In this document: one piece after another, positions 11,328 through 63,691 of the stretch | How positions within the stretch are numbered: the first letter of the stretch is position 1 | Layout: each line of letters starts with the position of its first letter | IMG/VR virus record: IMGVR_UViG_3300027985_000978 | Location: 17,680-81,679 of that record | Length of the DNA stretch: 64,000 nucleotides | Strand: one strand, 5' to 3' | Source: a virus | Translations under genes and position numbers: made by a program | The notes under the pieces: generated by a model | Seen by the model: the letters and a program-made list of their open reading frames with translations, nothing else | Database searches by the model: none | What the model was told of the DNA's origin: nothing

Positions 11328-11354
11328 GCCGCGCCTGTTATGGTGCGGCCTTTT
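11328..11354 (+). terminator. Hairpin terminator or attenuator between two plus-strand genes
   Basis: GCCGCGCC pairs with GGTGCGGC (one G-T pair) around a 6-nt loop, followed by TTTT. The T run overlaps the leader of the next gene, whose Shine-Dalgarno TTGGAG follows directly, so it may attenuate rather than stop transcription. Confidence 0.65.
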
Positions 11355-11366
11355 GGAGTACCTATC

Positions 11367-11783
11367 ATGGCATCTGTAAAAAAATCTGTTCGTCTGATTG
11401 ATGCAACTATCCGTATTTGTCGCGTTATTTCCCGTATCAGCAAAGTAGCACCAGACAATGAAATTAACTGGTCTGGTTCGATTAACACTATGGCTGCCGA
11501 ATATGCGCTGATCATGGAAGAGAACAAACCAGAACTGACATTCAATCAATGGAACGCGCTTTACTGTCTGTATAACGGCTATATGCCGTCTGAATACCCT
11601 GAAAGAGAAGCACGGCTTTTGTGGTGGCACATTTCTGAAGGGTACACATGGGATGAACAGATAAAGGAATTCTTAGGCACGCAAGAAGCGGCGGCGGCCC
11701 TCATTGAAGAAGTGAAAGGATGGAACGTTGCCAAACAGCTATCAGCCATCTATCACGCCAAGGCGTTCTGGTCGGAGGTGTAA
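11367..11783 (+). CDS. Unknown 138-residue protein
   Basis: Start placed at the ATG at 11367 behind TTTTGGAG; the longer frame from 11340 would begin inside the terminator hairpin. The N-terminal 30 residues are basic (KKSVRLIDATIRICRVISRIS), the rest acidic and aromatic with LTFNQWNALYCLYNGY and a helical C-terminus. No membrane segment. It follows the 375-residue gene through an attenuator-like hairpin and precedes the endolysin. Family not recognised. Confidence 0.65.
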   Translation: MASVKKSVRLIDATIRICRVISRISKVAPDNEINWSGSINTMAAEYALIMEENKPELTFNQWNALYCLYNGYMPSEYPEREARLLWWHISEGYTWDEQIKEFLGTQEAAAALIEEVKGWNVAKQLSAIYHAKAFWSEV

Positions 11784-11823
11784 TCATGCAGCCACTAAAA
11801 ACACCTTTCACCACCTCACAGAT

Positions 11824-11832
11824 TGATTAGGA
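11824..11832 (+). repeat. TGATTAGGA dispersed element ahead of the endolysin
   Basis: TGATTAGGATAA, a member of the ten-copy family. It directly abuts the long inverted repeat that covers the endolysin start. Confidence 0.55.
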
Positions 11833-11874
11833 TAAGATCTCCCATTGGCTCGTAATGACAATGGGAGATCTTAT
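11832..11874 (+). promoter_or_regulatory. Perfect 16-bp hairpin covering the endolysin ribosome binding site
   Basis: ATAAGATCTCCCATTG (11832-11847) and its exact complement (11859-11874) flank an 11-nt loop. The 3' arm holds GGGAG, the Shine-Dalgarno of the ATG at 11876, so in mRNA the site would be fully paired. An alternative in-frame ATG (11855) lies in the loop. There is no T run on either strand, so it is not a terminator. Translation would need the stem to be opened, for example by upstream translation, a protein, an RNA or heat. Confidence 0.85.
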
Positions 11875-11875
11875 A

Positions 11876-12313
11876 ATGACAACCACATTACCCCGTGGGA
11901 TTCGCAACAATAACGCCGGTAATATTGATTATCACGCATCAGTTCAATGGCAGGGATTAGACCCCGCAAAACCTTCTGACGGTCGATTCTGCCGGTTCAT
12001 CAAACCTGAGTATGGTATCCGCGCTATTACTCGTATCCTGCGCAACTACACTAAGCGTGACGGCACAGCTGGCGTGGGACTGAAGGGCATTGATACCGTT
12101 TATGAAATTATCAATCGCTGGGCTCCGCCAACAGAAAACGACACGGGCGCTTATATCGCCGCAGTCGCTAAAAATGCAGGCGTTGATCCGAAAGAACACA
12201 TCGAACTGACAGAAGAAAAACTGCTAGTTCTGGTGAAAGCGATTGTGAAGCATGAAAACGGGATTCAGCCGTATTCAGATAGCACCATTTTGGCCGGTAT
12301 TAAGTTAGCTTAG
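11876..12313 (+). CDS. Endolysin / virion-type muramidase (structural protein P5-like)
   Basis: 145 residues from the ATG at 11876; a start at 11855 would add seven residues. The N-terminal signature PRGIRNNNAGNI and the following W-x-G-LD-x-G and F-x-x-x-x-x-GIRA patterns are those of the phage structural protein P5/lysozyme-like family, which cuts peptidoglycan. No signal peptide is visible, so release would depend on a holin; two holin-like genes lie elsewhere (21394 and 41565). It stands alone between hairpins and is the likely lysis enzyme, in the role of P1 Lyz, although it could be a virion muramidase. Confidence 0.8.
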   Translation: MTTTLPRGIRNNNAGNIDYHASVQWQGLDPAKPSDGRFCRFIKPEYGIRAITRILRNYTKRDGTAGVGLKGIDTVYEIINRWAPPTENDTGAYIAAVAKNAGVDPKEHIELTEEKLLVLVKAIVKHENGIQPYSDSTILAGIKLA

Positions 12314-12351: not shown

Positions 12352-12360
12352 TGATTAGGA
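12352..12360 (+). repeat. TGATTAGGA dispersed element after the endolysin
   Basis: TGATTAGGATAATCA; the ends TGATT and AATCA make a small dyad. It lies in the 136-bp gap between the convergent endolysin and dar operon. Confidence 0.5.
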
Positions 12361-12417
12361 TAATCAACGGGCAACTTACACAGTAACTTGAATAGGACAA
12401 GGCTGGGTAGGATGGGA

Positions 12418-12443
12418 AAAGGGCAGTCTTCGGACTGCCCTTT
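12418..12443. terminator. Bidirectional terminator with UUCG loop
   Basis: An 11-bp perfect stem AAAGGGCAGTC/GACTGCCCTTT closes a TTCG tetraloop. It has T runs on both strands and lies between the convergent endolysin gene and the end of the dar-type operon. Confidence 0.93.
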
Positions 12444-12449
12444 GTCTTT

Positions 12450-12806
12450 CTAGCGGTTCAACAAGTTCAATAACGCATTGTGTCGTCTGACATGGGCCGG
12501 AACCGATTCAAACATATCTGAATCACTTTCTTCCGAATGATTACCGTCTAAATCGTCGCTGGTGGCCTCTGTCAGCCCCGTTACAGTGATTCCGGCACTT
12601 TCAAGCGCCATAGATACCCCGATTGGCGTAAATGCGCCTACAGCCATTCTACAGCCTCGCCCGTCCTGTTCGCCGTCGCTCATACCCTCAATTGTTTCCT
12701 GATATTCTTCTGGTGTAACAATCATTGCGGCTGGTTCGTCGGATGATTCGACATCGAACCGACACACCACCAGCTGATCAAACAATGTAAATGATAGTTC
12801 CTGCAT
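12450..12806 (-). CDS. Small acidic protein ending the dar-type operon
   Basis: 118 residues; its ATG overlaps the ddrB stop (TAATG), so translation is coupled. Acidic, with ESSDEPAAMIVTPEEYQETIEGMSDGEQ near residues 18-45 and no recognisable motif. In P1 small genes of unknown role (iddA, iddB) follow ddrB; this would be an equivalent by position. It is the last gene before the strong terminator. Confidence 0.7.
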   Translation of the reverse strand: MQELSFTLFDQLVVCRFDVESSDEPAAMIVTPEEYQETIEGMSDGEQDGRGCRMAVGAFTPIGVSMALESAGITVTGLTEATSDDLDGNHSEESDSDMFESVPAHVRRHNALLNLLNR

Positions 12807-56327: not shown

Positions 56328-57440
56328 CTACACTTTACCGGCACGCCGGATCGCCATTGCGCTATCTTTTACGAACATATCCCGACAATACCGGATCACC
56401 ATACGTTCACTGGCCCAGCGCCCAGCCTGCATGATCTGAAGGGCGTTGAACCCAGCCGCCGCCAAGTCTTGCGCCGCACCGACACGGGCAGAGTGACCAG
56501 ACAGGCACGGGATACCGTAGTATTGCAGCCCCAGCACTTCCCACACACGGGCGAACACGCGCTCAATGGTTTTCACCGATAGCGGCTCATTACCGGTGCT
56601 TGGTTTGTTGTACCGGTTCACCTTGCCGAAGAGTGGCACGTCTTCACCCAGCTTACGGCCTGACAATGACAGGTAATCAATAATGATACTTACGGCCTGC
56701 CGTGACAGGGCCGCTTTGTCTGGTTCGCCCGAATGGTTTGTTTTGGTGATTGGGATAGTCAAAACACCTGTACCGTCTGAAAACACTTTGATATGACGCC
56801 CCCGAACCCGCGCCAATTCTTGAGCGCGTAGCATGGATTCATAAGCCACGGCCATGATTGCCAGATCGCGCCGGTTCGCTATGCTTTCACTGTATCGCCA
56901 CATATCCACCAACTGATCTAAATTGTGCTCATGAAAGCCTGCCGCCTGCTCTACTGTTTCTTCATGCTGGACTTTGTTTCTGACAATGCCCTCATAAGTA
57001 CCTTTGAATAGTTCGTCATTCGTTGGATCGGGGCAGCCGGTTACTTTATGGATTCTTGAGATCGCCCAGCGGTCAATCGCCAGTGTATTTCTATGCACCA
57101 GCTGGCCGCGTTGTTTGATGTAAATCTCTGCCGTTCCGACACTGGCCGGTAACGAACACGCGCCCACATCGAGACACCAACGATCAAACCGTTCCCATGC
57201 GCTTTTGATAGATTGCATCGTTCTGGCTGAATATCTATCGCCGCGCTCATGGAACCCGATCAAGAACCGGTTGATCGCGTCCTGTACTGGCTGATAGTTC
57301 TGGATCTCAATTCCGCGCAATTGCGCATTAGCAATCAGACCTGAAAGCGCTTCCGTGGTGATATTCTCGAATGCGACCTGATTTAGCACATTTTCCACGT
57401 TGGCTAAATTGCTGGTGGTAGTTACTAAGTTTTGAGCCAT
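56328..57440 (-). CDS. cre: Cre-family tyrosine recombinase (VCre/Vika-like)
   Basis: 370 residues. Catalytic residues visible: Arg205 (ESMLRAQELA), Lys233 (ITKTNHSG), His316 and Arg319 (SGHSARVGAAQDL), Trp342 (AGRWASERM) and nucleophile Tyr351 (VIRYCRD). The stretches HRNTLAIDRWAISRIHKVTGCPDP and LTIPITKTNHSGEPD are very like remembered VCre sequence and less like P1 Cre. In phage-plasmids the enzyme circularises redundant DNA and resolves plasmid dimers. It stands alone with a terminator after it and a 34-bp lox-like site 65 bp upstream. Confidence 0.93.
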   Translation of the reverse strand: MAQNLVTTTSNLANVENVLNQVAFENITTEALSGLIANAQLRGIEIQNYQPVQDAINRFLIGFHERGDRYSARTMQSIKSAWERFDRWCLDVGACSLPASVGTAEIYIKQRGQLVHRNTLAIDRWAISRIHKVTGCPDPTNDELFKGTYEGIVRNKVQHEETVEQAAGFHEHNLDQLVDMWRYSESIANRRDLAIMAVAYESMLRAQELARVRGRHIKVFSDGTGVLTIPITKTNHSGEPDKAALSRQAVSIIIDYLSLSGRKLGEDVPLFGKVNRYNKPSTGNEPLSVKTIERVFARVWEVLGLQYYGIPCLSGHSARVGAAQDLAAAGFNALQIMQAGRWASERMVIRYCRDMFVKDSAMAIRRAGKV

Positions 57441-58455: not shown

Positions 58456-58530
58456 CACCCCTCTCTTTTGTGCGCTTTGCTTATCTTTTGTCCGGTTCTA
58501 TCCTAATCATATTGATTCTAAAATCCGGTT

Positions 58531-58550
58531 GTGCGTTACTTGTAACGCAC
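58531..58550 (+). promoter_or_regulatory. Operator-like dyad with GTTAC-GTAAC core, copy 1
   Basis: GTGCGTTAC-TT-GTAACGCAC, 9-bp perfect arms, 48 bp before the ATG at 58598. Its core is the reverse complement of the dyad upstream of parM (62535-62546). Confidence 0.7.
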
Positions 58551-58597
58551 CACTGAACTAAAAAAATAGATGCAACGATAAACAGGAGTAGAGAACC

Positions 58598-62323: not shown

Positions 62324-62520
62324 CAATGGTTAGAAATGGTTATGAACTGGTACAAAACGGAATTGAACTGGATTAATCAGGCGCTCAGTAGGCATGAATC
62401 AGAACCAACGGAACCGATCAATAAACCAGCAAACGGTTAGAAATGGTTGTTTTGTGACTATTTCAGCGCGTGAAATAGCAACAAATAAACCGTTTATGGC
62501 TTGAAATGGTATTCGTTTGG
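62324..62520 (+). repeat. Helically phased AATGGT repeats upstream of parM (parC candidate)
   Basis: At 62321-62370 successive 10-mers end AATGGT, AATGGT, AACTGG, AAACGG and GAACTG, one per helical turn. GGTTAGAAATGGTT recurs at 62329 and 62435, with further variants AAACCGTTTATGG and GAAATGGTATTCG to 62520. In plasmid R1 the ParR-binding centromere parC is a set of about 11-bp direct repeats just before parM. Divergence of the units makes borders uncertain. Confidence 0.6.
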
Positions 62521-62587: not shown

Positions 62588-63691
62588 ATGTCTAAAGAGA
62601 ATCAAGAATTTATCGCACTGGTAGCACTGGACGACGGTTCAGGTAATATTGCGTGCCGGTTTGAAGACACTGATAAACAGGTGTTTGAGAAGTACATCCC
62701 CGCCCGTATCGAACGCGGTTCAGCGGCTGGTTTAGGCGGCTCCGGCATGTCTGCCAACGTATGGGAAACCGAAGAAGGGAATCGTTTCACTGTTCGGAAA
62801 AACCCACTGAAACCCGTATCAACCCTCGATCCAGACTATCAGCTATCTGAAGCAAACCGCGTTCTAGCCCTGCACACCATGAGCAAGGCCGGTTTAGGTG
62901 ATGTGCCTTGCGTTGTTGGCTGTACCATGCCAGCTGAACAGTTCTACAACAAAGGGGACGATCACAACCCTTTTGATGAAGAGCGCCAGAAAGCCAAGGG
63001 CCGCAACCTAATGAAACGGATAACAAACGTTTACGGCGGCATTAAACCCCCTCGCGTTCTGATTGTTCAGGCATTCCCTGAAGGTTTACCGGCGTTTTTC
63101 TGGCTGGCTTATGGTGAACGCCACGGCGAACGCCCTAAATACACAGAAAATCAGACTACACTCATTGTCGATCTTGGTGAGTTCACCGCAGATTTAGCAC
63201 TGGTGGGTTCTGGCGCTGAAGATGAAGTTTTAGCCTATAGCACACATGAGCACGGCATCCACGTCATGGTTGAACGCTTCAGAGCCTTGCTTGCACGGGA
63301 AGGCATACAGGACGCCAAATCAATTCCTACTGCTAACCTTAAAAATATTATCCAGTGCGGCTATATCGGAACTGATCTCGAAACGCCTGAAGCAATCGCG
63401 GCGCGTGTGGATATATCCCACTTGGTAGCTGAAGCGGCTGAATACCTGAATGATTTATTACTGGAAGATATCAGAGAATTAACCCGTGGCGTACAGCTAA
63501 CCCGTATCGGCTTTGTTGGCGGTGGTGCTTACTGGCTGGGTGGTTTAGCGCGTAAAACTTGGAAATATCCGGTTGATATTCCAGACGAGCCAGAATTAGC
63601 CATTGTGCGCGGCGTTCATCTGCTTATGCAGAACGATCAAGCGGCCCTGCTGAAACAGGCACGCGCAAAACTCGCAAAGGAGACTGAATAA
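62588..63691 (+). CDS. parM: ParM/StbA-type actin-like partition ATPase
   Basis: 367 residues, ATG behind CAAGGAGCAACGTA. Actin-fold motifs: phosphate 1 ALDDGSGNI (13-21), phosphate 2 LIVDLGEFTADLAL (about 191-204) and adenosine motif GFVGGGAYWLGG. The protein would form filaments that push plasmid copies apart after binding ParR at parC. P1 itself uses ParA/ParB; an actin system here is a clear difference. The stop TAA is followed directly by the parR-candidate ATG. Confidence 0.9.
   Translation: MSKENQEFIALVALDDGSGNIACRFEDTDKQVFEKYIPARIERGSAAGLGGSGMSANVWETEEGNRFTVRKNPLKPVSTLDPDYQLSEANRVLALHTMSKAGLGDVPCVVGCTMPAEQFYNKGDDHNPFDEERQKAKGRNLMKRITNVYGGIKPPRVLIVQAFPEGLPAFFWLAYGERHGERPKYTENQTTLIVDLGEFTADLALVGSGAEDEVLAYSTHEHGIHVMVERFRALLAREGIQDAKSIPTANLKNIIQCGYIGTDLETPEAIAARVDISHLVAEAAEYLNDLLLEDIRELTRGVQLTRIGFVGGGAYWLGGLARKTWKYPVDIPDEPELAIVRGVHLLMQNDQAALLKQARAKLAKETE

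What the first reader, a model, noticed from the sequence alone, without database searches (positions are those of the whole stretch)
11832..11874. 16-bp perfect hairpin that buries the endolysin ribosome binding site
ATAAGATCTCCCATTG and its exact complement, with an 11-nt loop, place the Shine-Dalgarno GGGAG of the lysis gene inside a stem. This is not a terminator (no T run). It is a likely translational switch for lysis timing, for example opened by heat, by a small RNA or by coupling to an upstream AUG in the loop (11855).
Basis: partly seen in the sequence, partly recalled or inferred. Interest (0 to 1): 0.78.

Follow-up and report, generated by a model that had tools for sequence, protein, structure and literature searches.

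The report
RNA hairpin hiding a lysin's ribosome site
In a P1-like phage-plasmid, the message for the cell-wall-cutting lysis enzyme folds into an unusually strong hairpin that should hide its ribosome landing site, and a tiny 14-codon gene ending one base before the hairpin is the likeliest device for opening it.

Summary
The hairpin is real: arms 11832-11847 and 11859-11874, 16 of 16 pairs, 11-nt loop. It is the longest perfect short-loop inverted repeat in the 81.7-kb viral record; shuffled windows reach at most 11 bp. It covers the Shine-Dalgarno (GGGAG, 11863-11867) of an Enc34-type endolysin (11876-12313) that has the family's catalytic Glu. The phage is P1-like (Cre, DarB, LydA/LydB, PacA/PacB homologues). 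None of about 90 sampled lysin relatives has such a hairpin. RBS sequestration is a strong prediction (about -24 kcal/mol). A thermometer is unlikely, because predicted SD accessibility stays near 0 up to 70 C.

(1) A 14-codon ORF (ATG 11786, TAG 11828-11830) with a GGAGGT Shine-Dalgarno ends 1 nt before the hairpin, so a ribosome terminating there should melt most of the 5' arm. (2) The 5' arm overlaps one of 16 copies of an operator-like site, TGATTAGGA, that resembles P1's C1-operator network.

Preferred model: translational coupling of the lysin to the leader ORF. Main rival: T4 gene-e control, with a promoter in the 5' arm. Both are known kinds of control. No step is tested experimentally and no relative conserves the element.

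The parts
11340..11783 (+). upstream gene of the same operon, 147 aa, unknown function; its end carries the leader's Shine-Dalgarno
   Evidence: ORF; 66% identical relative on L005; no Pfam or PHROG hit
11774..11779 (+). Shine-Dalgarno GGAGGT of the leader ORF, 6 nt before ATG 11786
   Evidence: sequence; SD plus ATG after a gene end is found at 0.18% of random coding positions
11786..11830 (+). 14-codon leader ORF, MQPLKTPFTTSQID*, stop TAG 11828-11830, 1 nt before the hairpin
   Evidence: read from the sequence; translation expected from start and SD, not shown
11824..11835 (+). operator-like site TGATTAGGATAA; overlaps the leader stop and the first 4 nt of the 5' arm
   Evidence: core TGATTAGGA 10 times in the window against 0.44 expected, 16 times in the record
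11828..11833 (+). candidate weak -10 element TAGGAT (rival, T4 gene-e-like model)
   Evidence: score 5.6, in the top 0.6% of plus-strand positions; no strong -35; the simple scan finds no promoter
11832..11847 (+). 5' arm of the hairpin
11848..11858 (+). loop GCTCGTAATGA, with an in-frame ATG at 11855 lacking an SD
11859..11874 (+). 3' arm of the hairpin, containing the lysin SD
11863..11867 (+). Shine-Dalgarno GGGAG of the lysin
   Evidence: sequence; predicted unpaired probability about 0
11876..12313 (+). Enc34-type endolysin, 145 aa
   Evidence: phrog_873 E=7e-57; PDB 7q47 E=1e-24; family invariants W82, Y93, E127 present
12352..12363 (+). second exact copy of TGATTAGGATAA, just after the lysin gene
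12418..12443 (.). intrinsic-terminator-like hairpin between convergent operons

Best explanation
The hairpin is a cis-acting translational lock on the endolysin gene, the last gene of the darB-side operon of a P1-like phage-plasmid. On any RNA that contains both arms, the Shine-Dalgarno is held in a 16-bp helix and 30S subunits cannot bind (strong prediction). The most likely key is the 14-codon leader ORF (11786-11830). Ribosomes finishing the gene at 11340-11783 reinitiate 2 nt downstream, or start at GGAGGT, and terminate at TAG 11828-11830. There they cover roughly 11812-11840, removing most of the 5' arm and cutting the helix from about -24 to between -11 and -7 kcal/mol. The SD, 33 nt further on, can then be bound by a second ribosome. 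Lysin output would thus depend on ribosome traffic through the leader (RNA-unfolding type of translational coupling), and RNA not translated there would stay silent. Steps inferred: leader translation, melting in vivo, dependence of lysin on it.
For: The hairpin exceeds chance and buries the SD. Of 83 gene starts scored in the record as listed, its RBS is the second least accessible, and with the true start 11876 it is lower than all of them (0.13 against median 0.48). No comparable hairpin occurs in 80 viral-contig relatives (longest arm 9 bp, accessibility 0.24 or more) or in 9 others, so it is specific to this locus. The leader has a 6-nt SD (GGAGGT) at good spacing, 2 nt after a gene stop, a pattern at 0.18% of random coding positions. 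Its stop lies 1 nt before the stem. Truncating the 5' arm by 8, 9, 10 or 11 nt leaves -11.4, -9.8, -6.7 or -3.4 kcal/mol. With 11812-11841 blocked, three of the five SD bases become mostly unpaired. The stop-to-start spacing (+45 nt) resembles the coupled rpmI-rplT pair (+52 nt; PMC12548453).
Against: No relative conserves leader or hairpin, so there is no covariation or selection evidence. The leader's own SD is predicted to pair with leader sequence (accessibility below 0.1), so its translation may need reinitiation. A terminating ribosome reaching only to 11840 leaves a 7-bp stem that still holds part of the SD. A leader stop near the hairpin in a given frame is not itself rare (my estimate 10-20%). 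If upstream traffic always opens the hairpin, it would set a ratio rather than a time. Folding energies and ribosome footprint are model values.
Confidence: 0.4

Rival explanations
1. T4 gene-e type control. Long read-through RNAs carry both arms and are silent; a dedicated late or induced promoter in the 5' arm region (-10 TAGGAT 11828-11833 or TAAGAT 11833-11838) makes short RNAs lacking the 5' arm, which are translated.
For: Documented for T4 e (about 100-fold), soc, 49 and I-TevI, with late promoters in the DNA of the 5' strand (PMC3014915, PMC2988022). The TGATTAGGA site, found upstream of several operons including lydA, the major capsid gene, pacA and mat, lies on this spot. TAGGAT scores 5.6, within the range of P1 late promoters on the same matrix (1.5 to 6.1).
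Against: No sigma-70-like promoter at 9/12. No P1 Lpa homologue found and no Lpa box seen here. A start about 7 nt after TAGGAT (near 11840) would keep an 8-bp stem with the SD still mostly paired. A translated leader would defeat silencing of the long RNA.
Confidence: 0.28
2. The repeat works mainly as DNA: part of an operator or promoter region next to the TGATTAGGA site (repressor, accessory protein or recombinase site); RBS burial is a side effect.
For: The two longest perfect short-loop repeats in the record (this one and a 12-bp one at L006 5147-5186) both start inside an exact TGATTAGGATAA copy. The phage encodes a Cre homologue.
Against: Arm sequences are unrelated and recur nowhere at 3 or fewer mismatches. 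16-11-16 is not lox geometry (13-8-13). Exact coverage of an SD would be coincidence.
Confidence: 0.13
3. No regulatory role: a perfect palindrome recently made by template switching during replication, tolerated because lysin is made in excess or translated anyway.
For: Perfect identity and absence in all relatives fit a recent origin.
Against: A -24 kcal/mol helix over the RBS of the only lysis-type endolysin found should cost expression unless there is a way to open it; the leader is placed to do so.
Confidence: 0.12
4. The helix is an RNase III or other processing site; cleavage in the stem frees the RBS.
For: A perfect dsRNA stem between genes of an operon is the type of site used in phage leaders (general knowledge).
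Against: 16 bp is short for RNase III; no processing data.
Confidence: 0.04
5. RNA thermometer or small-RNA-opened switch.
For: Formal resemblance: hidden RBS.
Against: Predicted SD accessibility 0.003 or less from 20 to 70 C; no Rfam match; no complementary stretch over 10 nt in the record.
Confidence: 0.03

Closest known systems
T4 gene e (lysozyme) leader hairpin (PMC3014915)
   Same: A helix sequesters the Shine-Dalgarno of a phage lysis enzyme; the gene can be reached by long upstream transcripts
   Different: T4 has mapped late promoters in the 5' strand and measured repression; here no such promoter is recognised, and a leader ORF ends at the stem
RNA-unfolding translational coupling, e.g. 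MS2 coat-lysis, rpmI-rplT, f1 VII-IX (PMC12548453)
   Same: A ribosome on an upstream ORF melts a helix over the downstream RBS; +45 nt spacing is near the +52 nt of rpmI-rplT
   Different: The upstream ORF is only 14 codons and ends before the stem; coupling untested
Enc34-type endolysin, PHA02564 (PMC8943055, PDB 7q47)
   Same: Homologous catalytic domain with aligned catalytic Glu and conserved Trp/Tyr
   Different: 145 aa without the C-terminal transmembrane domain of Enc34; encoded in a P1-like phage away from the holin genes
P1 C1 operator network (annotated in AF234173)
   Same: About 15 dispersed asymmetric sites with a CTAAT core; one copy at the 3' end of the ref homologue upstream of mat matches Omat in position
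   Different: Core TCCTAATCA instead of GCTCTAAT (0 copies here); no C1 homologue found by tblastn
Gifsy-1 isrK-orf45-anrP (PMC4825925)
   Same: Prophage mRNA in which translation of a short upstream ORF is needed for the next gene
   Different: orf45 overlaps the anrP start and is itself controlled by an sRNA in trans

Membership tests
T4 gene-e type translational control | Helix including the Shine-Dalgarno | tested here: met
   Predicted SD unpaired probability about 0; in silico only
T4 gene-e type translational control | Promoter whose start excludes the 5' strand | tested here: inconclusive
   Only weak -10 candidates at 11828 and 11833; none in the strict scan
T4 gene-e type translational control | Short RNAs translated, long RNAs silent | not testable with these tools
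   Needs RNA and reporter data
Translational coupling by RNA unfolding | Upstream ORF with its own initiation signal, ending where a ribosome would disrupt the helix | tested here: met
   ORF 11786-11830, GGAGGT, stop 1 nt before the 5' arm
Translational coupling by RNA unfolding | Helix lost and SD exposed when the upstream ORF is occupied | tested here: inconclusive
   Partial: blocking to 11841 exposes 3 of 5 SD bases; residual -6.7 to -11.4 kcal/mol
Translational coupling by RNA unfolding | Downstream expression requires upstream translation | not testable with these tools
   Needs start-codon mutants
Enc34-type endolysin (PHA02564) | Homologous catalytic domain with catalytic Glu | tested here: met
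   7q47 E=1e-24, E127 aligned; E127, W82 and Y93 invariant in A1
Enc34-type endolysin (PHA02564) | C-terminal transmembrane domain (a feature of Enc34 itself, not of every family member) | tested here: not met
   Protein ends at the catalytic domain, as in the Nonagvirus lysins; not a defining feature of the family
RNA thermometer | Helix melting in a physiological temperature range | tested here: not met
   SD closed from 20 to 70 C
Intrinsic terminator | GC-rich stem followed by a U run | tested here: not met
   AATGACAACC follows; not listed
P1 C1 operator | Consensus ATTGCTCTAATAAATTT and a C1 repressor gene | tested here: not met
   GCTCTAAT 0 copies here, 15 in P1; no C1 hit

The most novel reading that the evidence does not exclude
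A leader-peptide attenuator of phage lysis: a 14-codon leader, whose stop codon lies inside a lysogeny-type operator site, unlocks an otherwise closed lysin RBS, so that lysin synthesis reads out ribosome traffic or stalling in the leader, with transcriptional (operator) and translational control fused in about 100 nt.
Probability: 0.15. Interest if true: 0.65.

Novelty: new member of a known kind. Interest (0 to 1): 0.42.

Why it matters
RBS-hiding hairpins on lysis genes are classic in T4 and in RNA phages. Finding one on an unrelated Enc34-type lysin in a P1-like phage-plasmid suggests independent evolution of the same safeguard. Phage-plasmids stay in the cell as plasmids, so keeping the lysin silent matters. 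The leader ORF at the stem base makes a specific, cheap test possible: does translating 14 codons unlock lysis?

Tried and rejected
Exact-pattern scan for the hairpin in viral contigs: none. Lysin and upstream-gene searches in genome contigs: no relatives. DNA search in plasmids and E. coli genomes: none. The upstream-gene relative on L005 has neither lysin nor hairpin behind it. P1-like relatives L007 and L012 carry an amidase near the same slot and no such hairpin there. Considered and rejected: terminator; thermometer; a known RNA family; lox-type site (arms unrelated to anything near cre); start at AUG 11855 (no SD, and homologues favour 11876). The idea that TGATTAGGA is a P1 Lpa-type activator box was left open: several copies sit at late-gene promoters, but copies also precede a RepL-like gene and a helix-turn-helix gene, the -22/-10 geometry does not fit, and one copy is placed like P1 Omat, so a repressor operator is favoured. 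The sigma-70 matrix is approximate, from general knowledge.

Full report
WHAT WAS CLAIMED AND WHETHER IT IS THERE. The claimed 16-bp perfect hairpin is present exactly at 11832-11874. A systematic scan finds it to be the longest perfect inverted repeat with a loop of 30 nt or less in the window; the next is the 11-bp terminator at 12418-12443, and shuffled windows reach 9-11 bp. The leader RNA folds 4.5 standard deviations below shuffles. The hairpin alone is worth about -24 kcal/mol, and the SD GGGAG (11863-11867) has a predicted unpaired probability of about 0. Among 83 gene starts scored in the record, the median accessibility of the RBS region is 0.48; the lysin with its true start (11876) has 0.13.

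WHERE IT IS. The window is 17680-81679 of an 81,679-base viral record. P1 proteins find homologues of DarB, Ulx, DdrB, DarA, Hdf, LydA, LydB, gp16, gp23, gp26, Ref, Mat, portal (Prt), Pro, PacA and the protein encoded after PacA. A 370-aa protein (56328-57440, minus) matches Cre (E = 7e-28), and 62588-63691 is ParM-like. It is a P1-like phage-plasmid. P1's Lyz, C1 and Lpa gave no hit. The lysin sits at the end of the plus-strand operon that starts with darB, next to the convergent ddrB operon. The same neighbourhood holds an amidase in the P1-like relatives L012 and L007.

THE ENZYME. 11876-12313 encodes 145 aa of the Enc34 family (phrog_873; PDB 7q47 E = 1e-24). The Enc34 paper assigns catalysis to Glu131, with Trp79 and Tyr95 (PMC8943055). 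The aligned E127, and W82 and Y93, are invariant in ten relatives. The nearest relatives, single-domain lysins of Nonagvirus-type phages, lie in spanin-lysin-holin cassettes, so 'endolysin' is a fair name. Homologues begin a few residues before PRGIRNNN, which supports start 11876 and not the loop AUG 11855.

First, a leader ORF. Two nucleotides after the stop of the upstream gene lies ATG 11786, preceded by GGAGGT at 11774-11779, opening MQPLKTPFTTSQID* with its stop at 11828-11830, one nucleotide before the 5' arm (the script printed this ORF one base out of frame, corrected here by reading the sequence). An SD plus ATG in that relation occurs at 0.18% of random coding positions, so the start is unlikely to be chance; the position of the stop is less improbable (my estimate 10-20%). 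Second, a dispersed site. TGATTAGGA occurs 10 times in the window (0.44 expected) and 16 times in the record, 13 outside long ORFs. Its other strand, ACTTCCTAATCAA, shares the CTAAT core with P1's C1 operators (GCTCTAAT: 15 in P1, 0 here). One copy lies at the 3' end of the ref homologue, upstream of the mat homologue, where P1 has Omat. I read it as the operator of this phage's own master repressor (about 70%). The copy TGATTAGGATAA at 11824-11835 supplies the leader's stop codon and the first four bases of the 5' arm; a second exact copy follows the lysin at 12352.

MECHANISM. The lock is a strong in-silico result. For the key, I prefer termination on the leader. A ribosome with TAG in the A site should cover to about 11840 (footprint from general knowledge). 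Removing 8 to 11 nt of the 5' arm leaves -11.4 to -3.4 kcal/mol, and blocking to 11841 exposes three of five SD bases. The SD lies far enough downstream to be loaded at the same time, as in rpmI-rplT (+52 nt) against +45 nt here (PMC12548453). The chief rival is the T4 gene-e design, in which upstream transcripts are silent and late transcripts begin inside the 5' arm (PMC3014915). TAGGAT at 11828 is a possible weak -10, but a start about seven bases on would keep an 8-bp stem with the SD mostly paired. The models are not exclusive in evolution but make opposite predictions for a leader-ATG mutation. Heat opening is not supported (SD closed from 20 to 70 C).

CONSERVATION. None of 80 viral-contig relatives of the lysin has an RBS inverted repeat over 9 bp or accessibility below 0.24; nine phage, plasmid and viral-contig relatives also lack it. 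The element is therefore particular to this phage or its unsampled kin. No covariation test was possible. This is the main weakness: perfection of the stem may reflect recent origin rather than selection.

UNEXPLAINED. The two longest perfect short-loop repeats in the record both start within an exact TGATTAGGATAA copy (L006 5138-5186), with unrelated arms, and the second does not cover an SD. Given that both are intergenic I estimate about a 1% coincidence. This is why a DNA-level role keeps 13%.

NOVELTY AND SCORE. An RBS-hiding hairpin on a phage lysis gene is a known kind (T4 e, MS2 L). The lysin family, phage type and leader-stop arrangement make this a new member. Interest 0.42: solid and testable, but a variation on textbook themes with no functional data.

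Noticed in passing
whole record; in the window e.g. 875, 11824, 12352, 21721, 40607, 47740, 50259, 50309, 58501, 62217: Sixteen exact copies of TGATTAGGA (consensus on the other strand ACTTCCTAATCAA), mostly intergenic, upstream of lydA, the major capsid gene, pacA, mat, a RepL-like gene and an HTH gene: a probable master-repressor operator network analogous to P1 C1 but with a different core.
   Followed up: partly
whole record: 95 Chi sites (GCTGGTGG, 37 plus and 58 minus; about 2 expected by composition); P1 has 50 in the sequence used. Suggests strong selection for RecBCD protection and a host with E. coli-type Chi.
   Followed up: partly
L006 5138-5186: A 12-bp perfect inverted repeat with a 16-nt loop starting inside another exact TGATTAGGATAA copy, upstream of minus-strand genes.
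   Followed up: partly
L005 4490-4566: Two type I-F CRISPR-like repeats (GTTTACTGCCGCATAGGCAGCTTAGAAA and GTTCACTGCCGCACAGGCAGCTTAGAAA) only about 20 nt apart on a viral contig, outside any array seen: possible mini-array or RNA anti-CRISPR.
   Followed up: no
12352-12450: A TGATTAGGATAA copy followed about 60 nt later by a good terminator in a convergent region with no gene: could encode a short RNA of about 75 nt.
   Followed up: no
58524-58557 and 62451-62486: Near-perfect inverted repeats with 2- to 8-nt spacers in intergenic DNA near cre and pacA; candidates for a lox-like site of the Cre homologue.
   Followed up: no
L007 9743-10210, L012 16790-17257: The neighbourhood of the ddrB-side small gene holds an amidase in P1-like relatives and an Enc34-type lysin here: a lysin-exchange hot spot.
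   Followed up: partly
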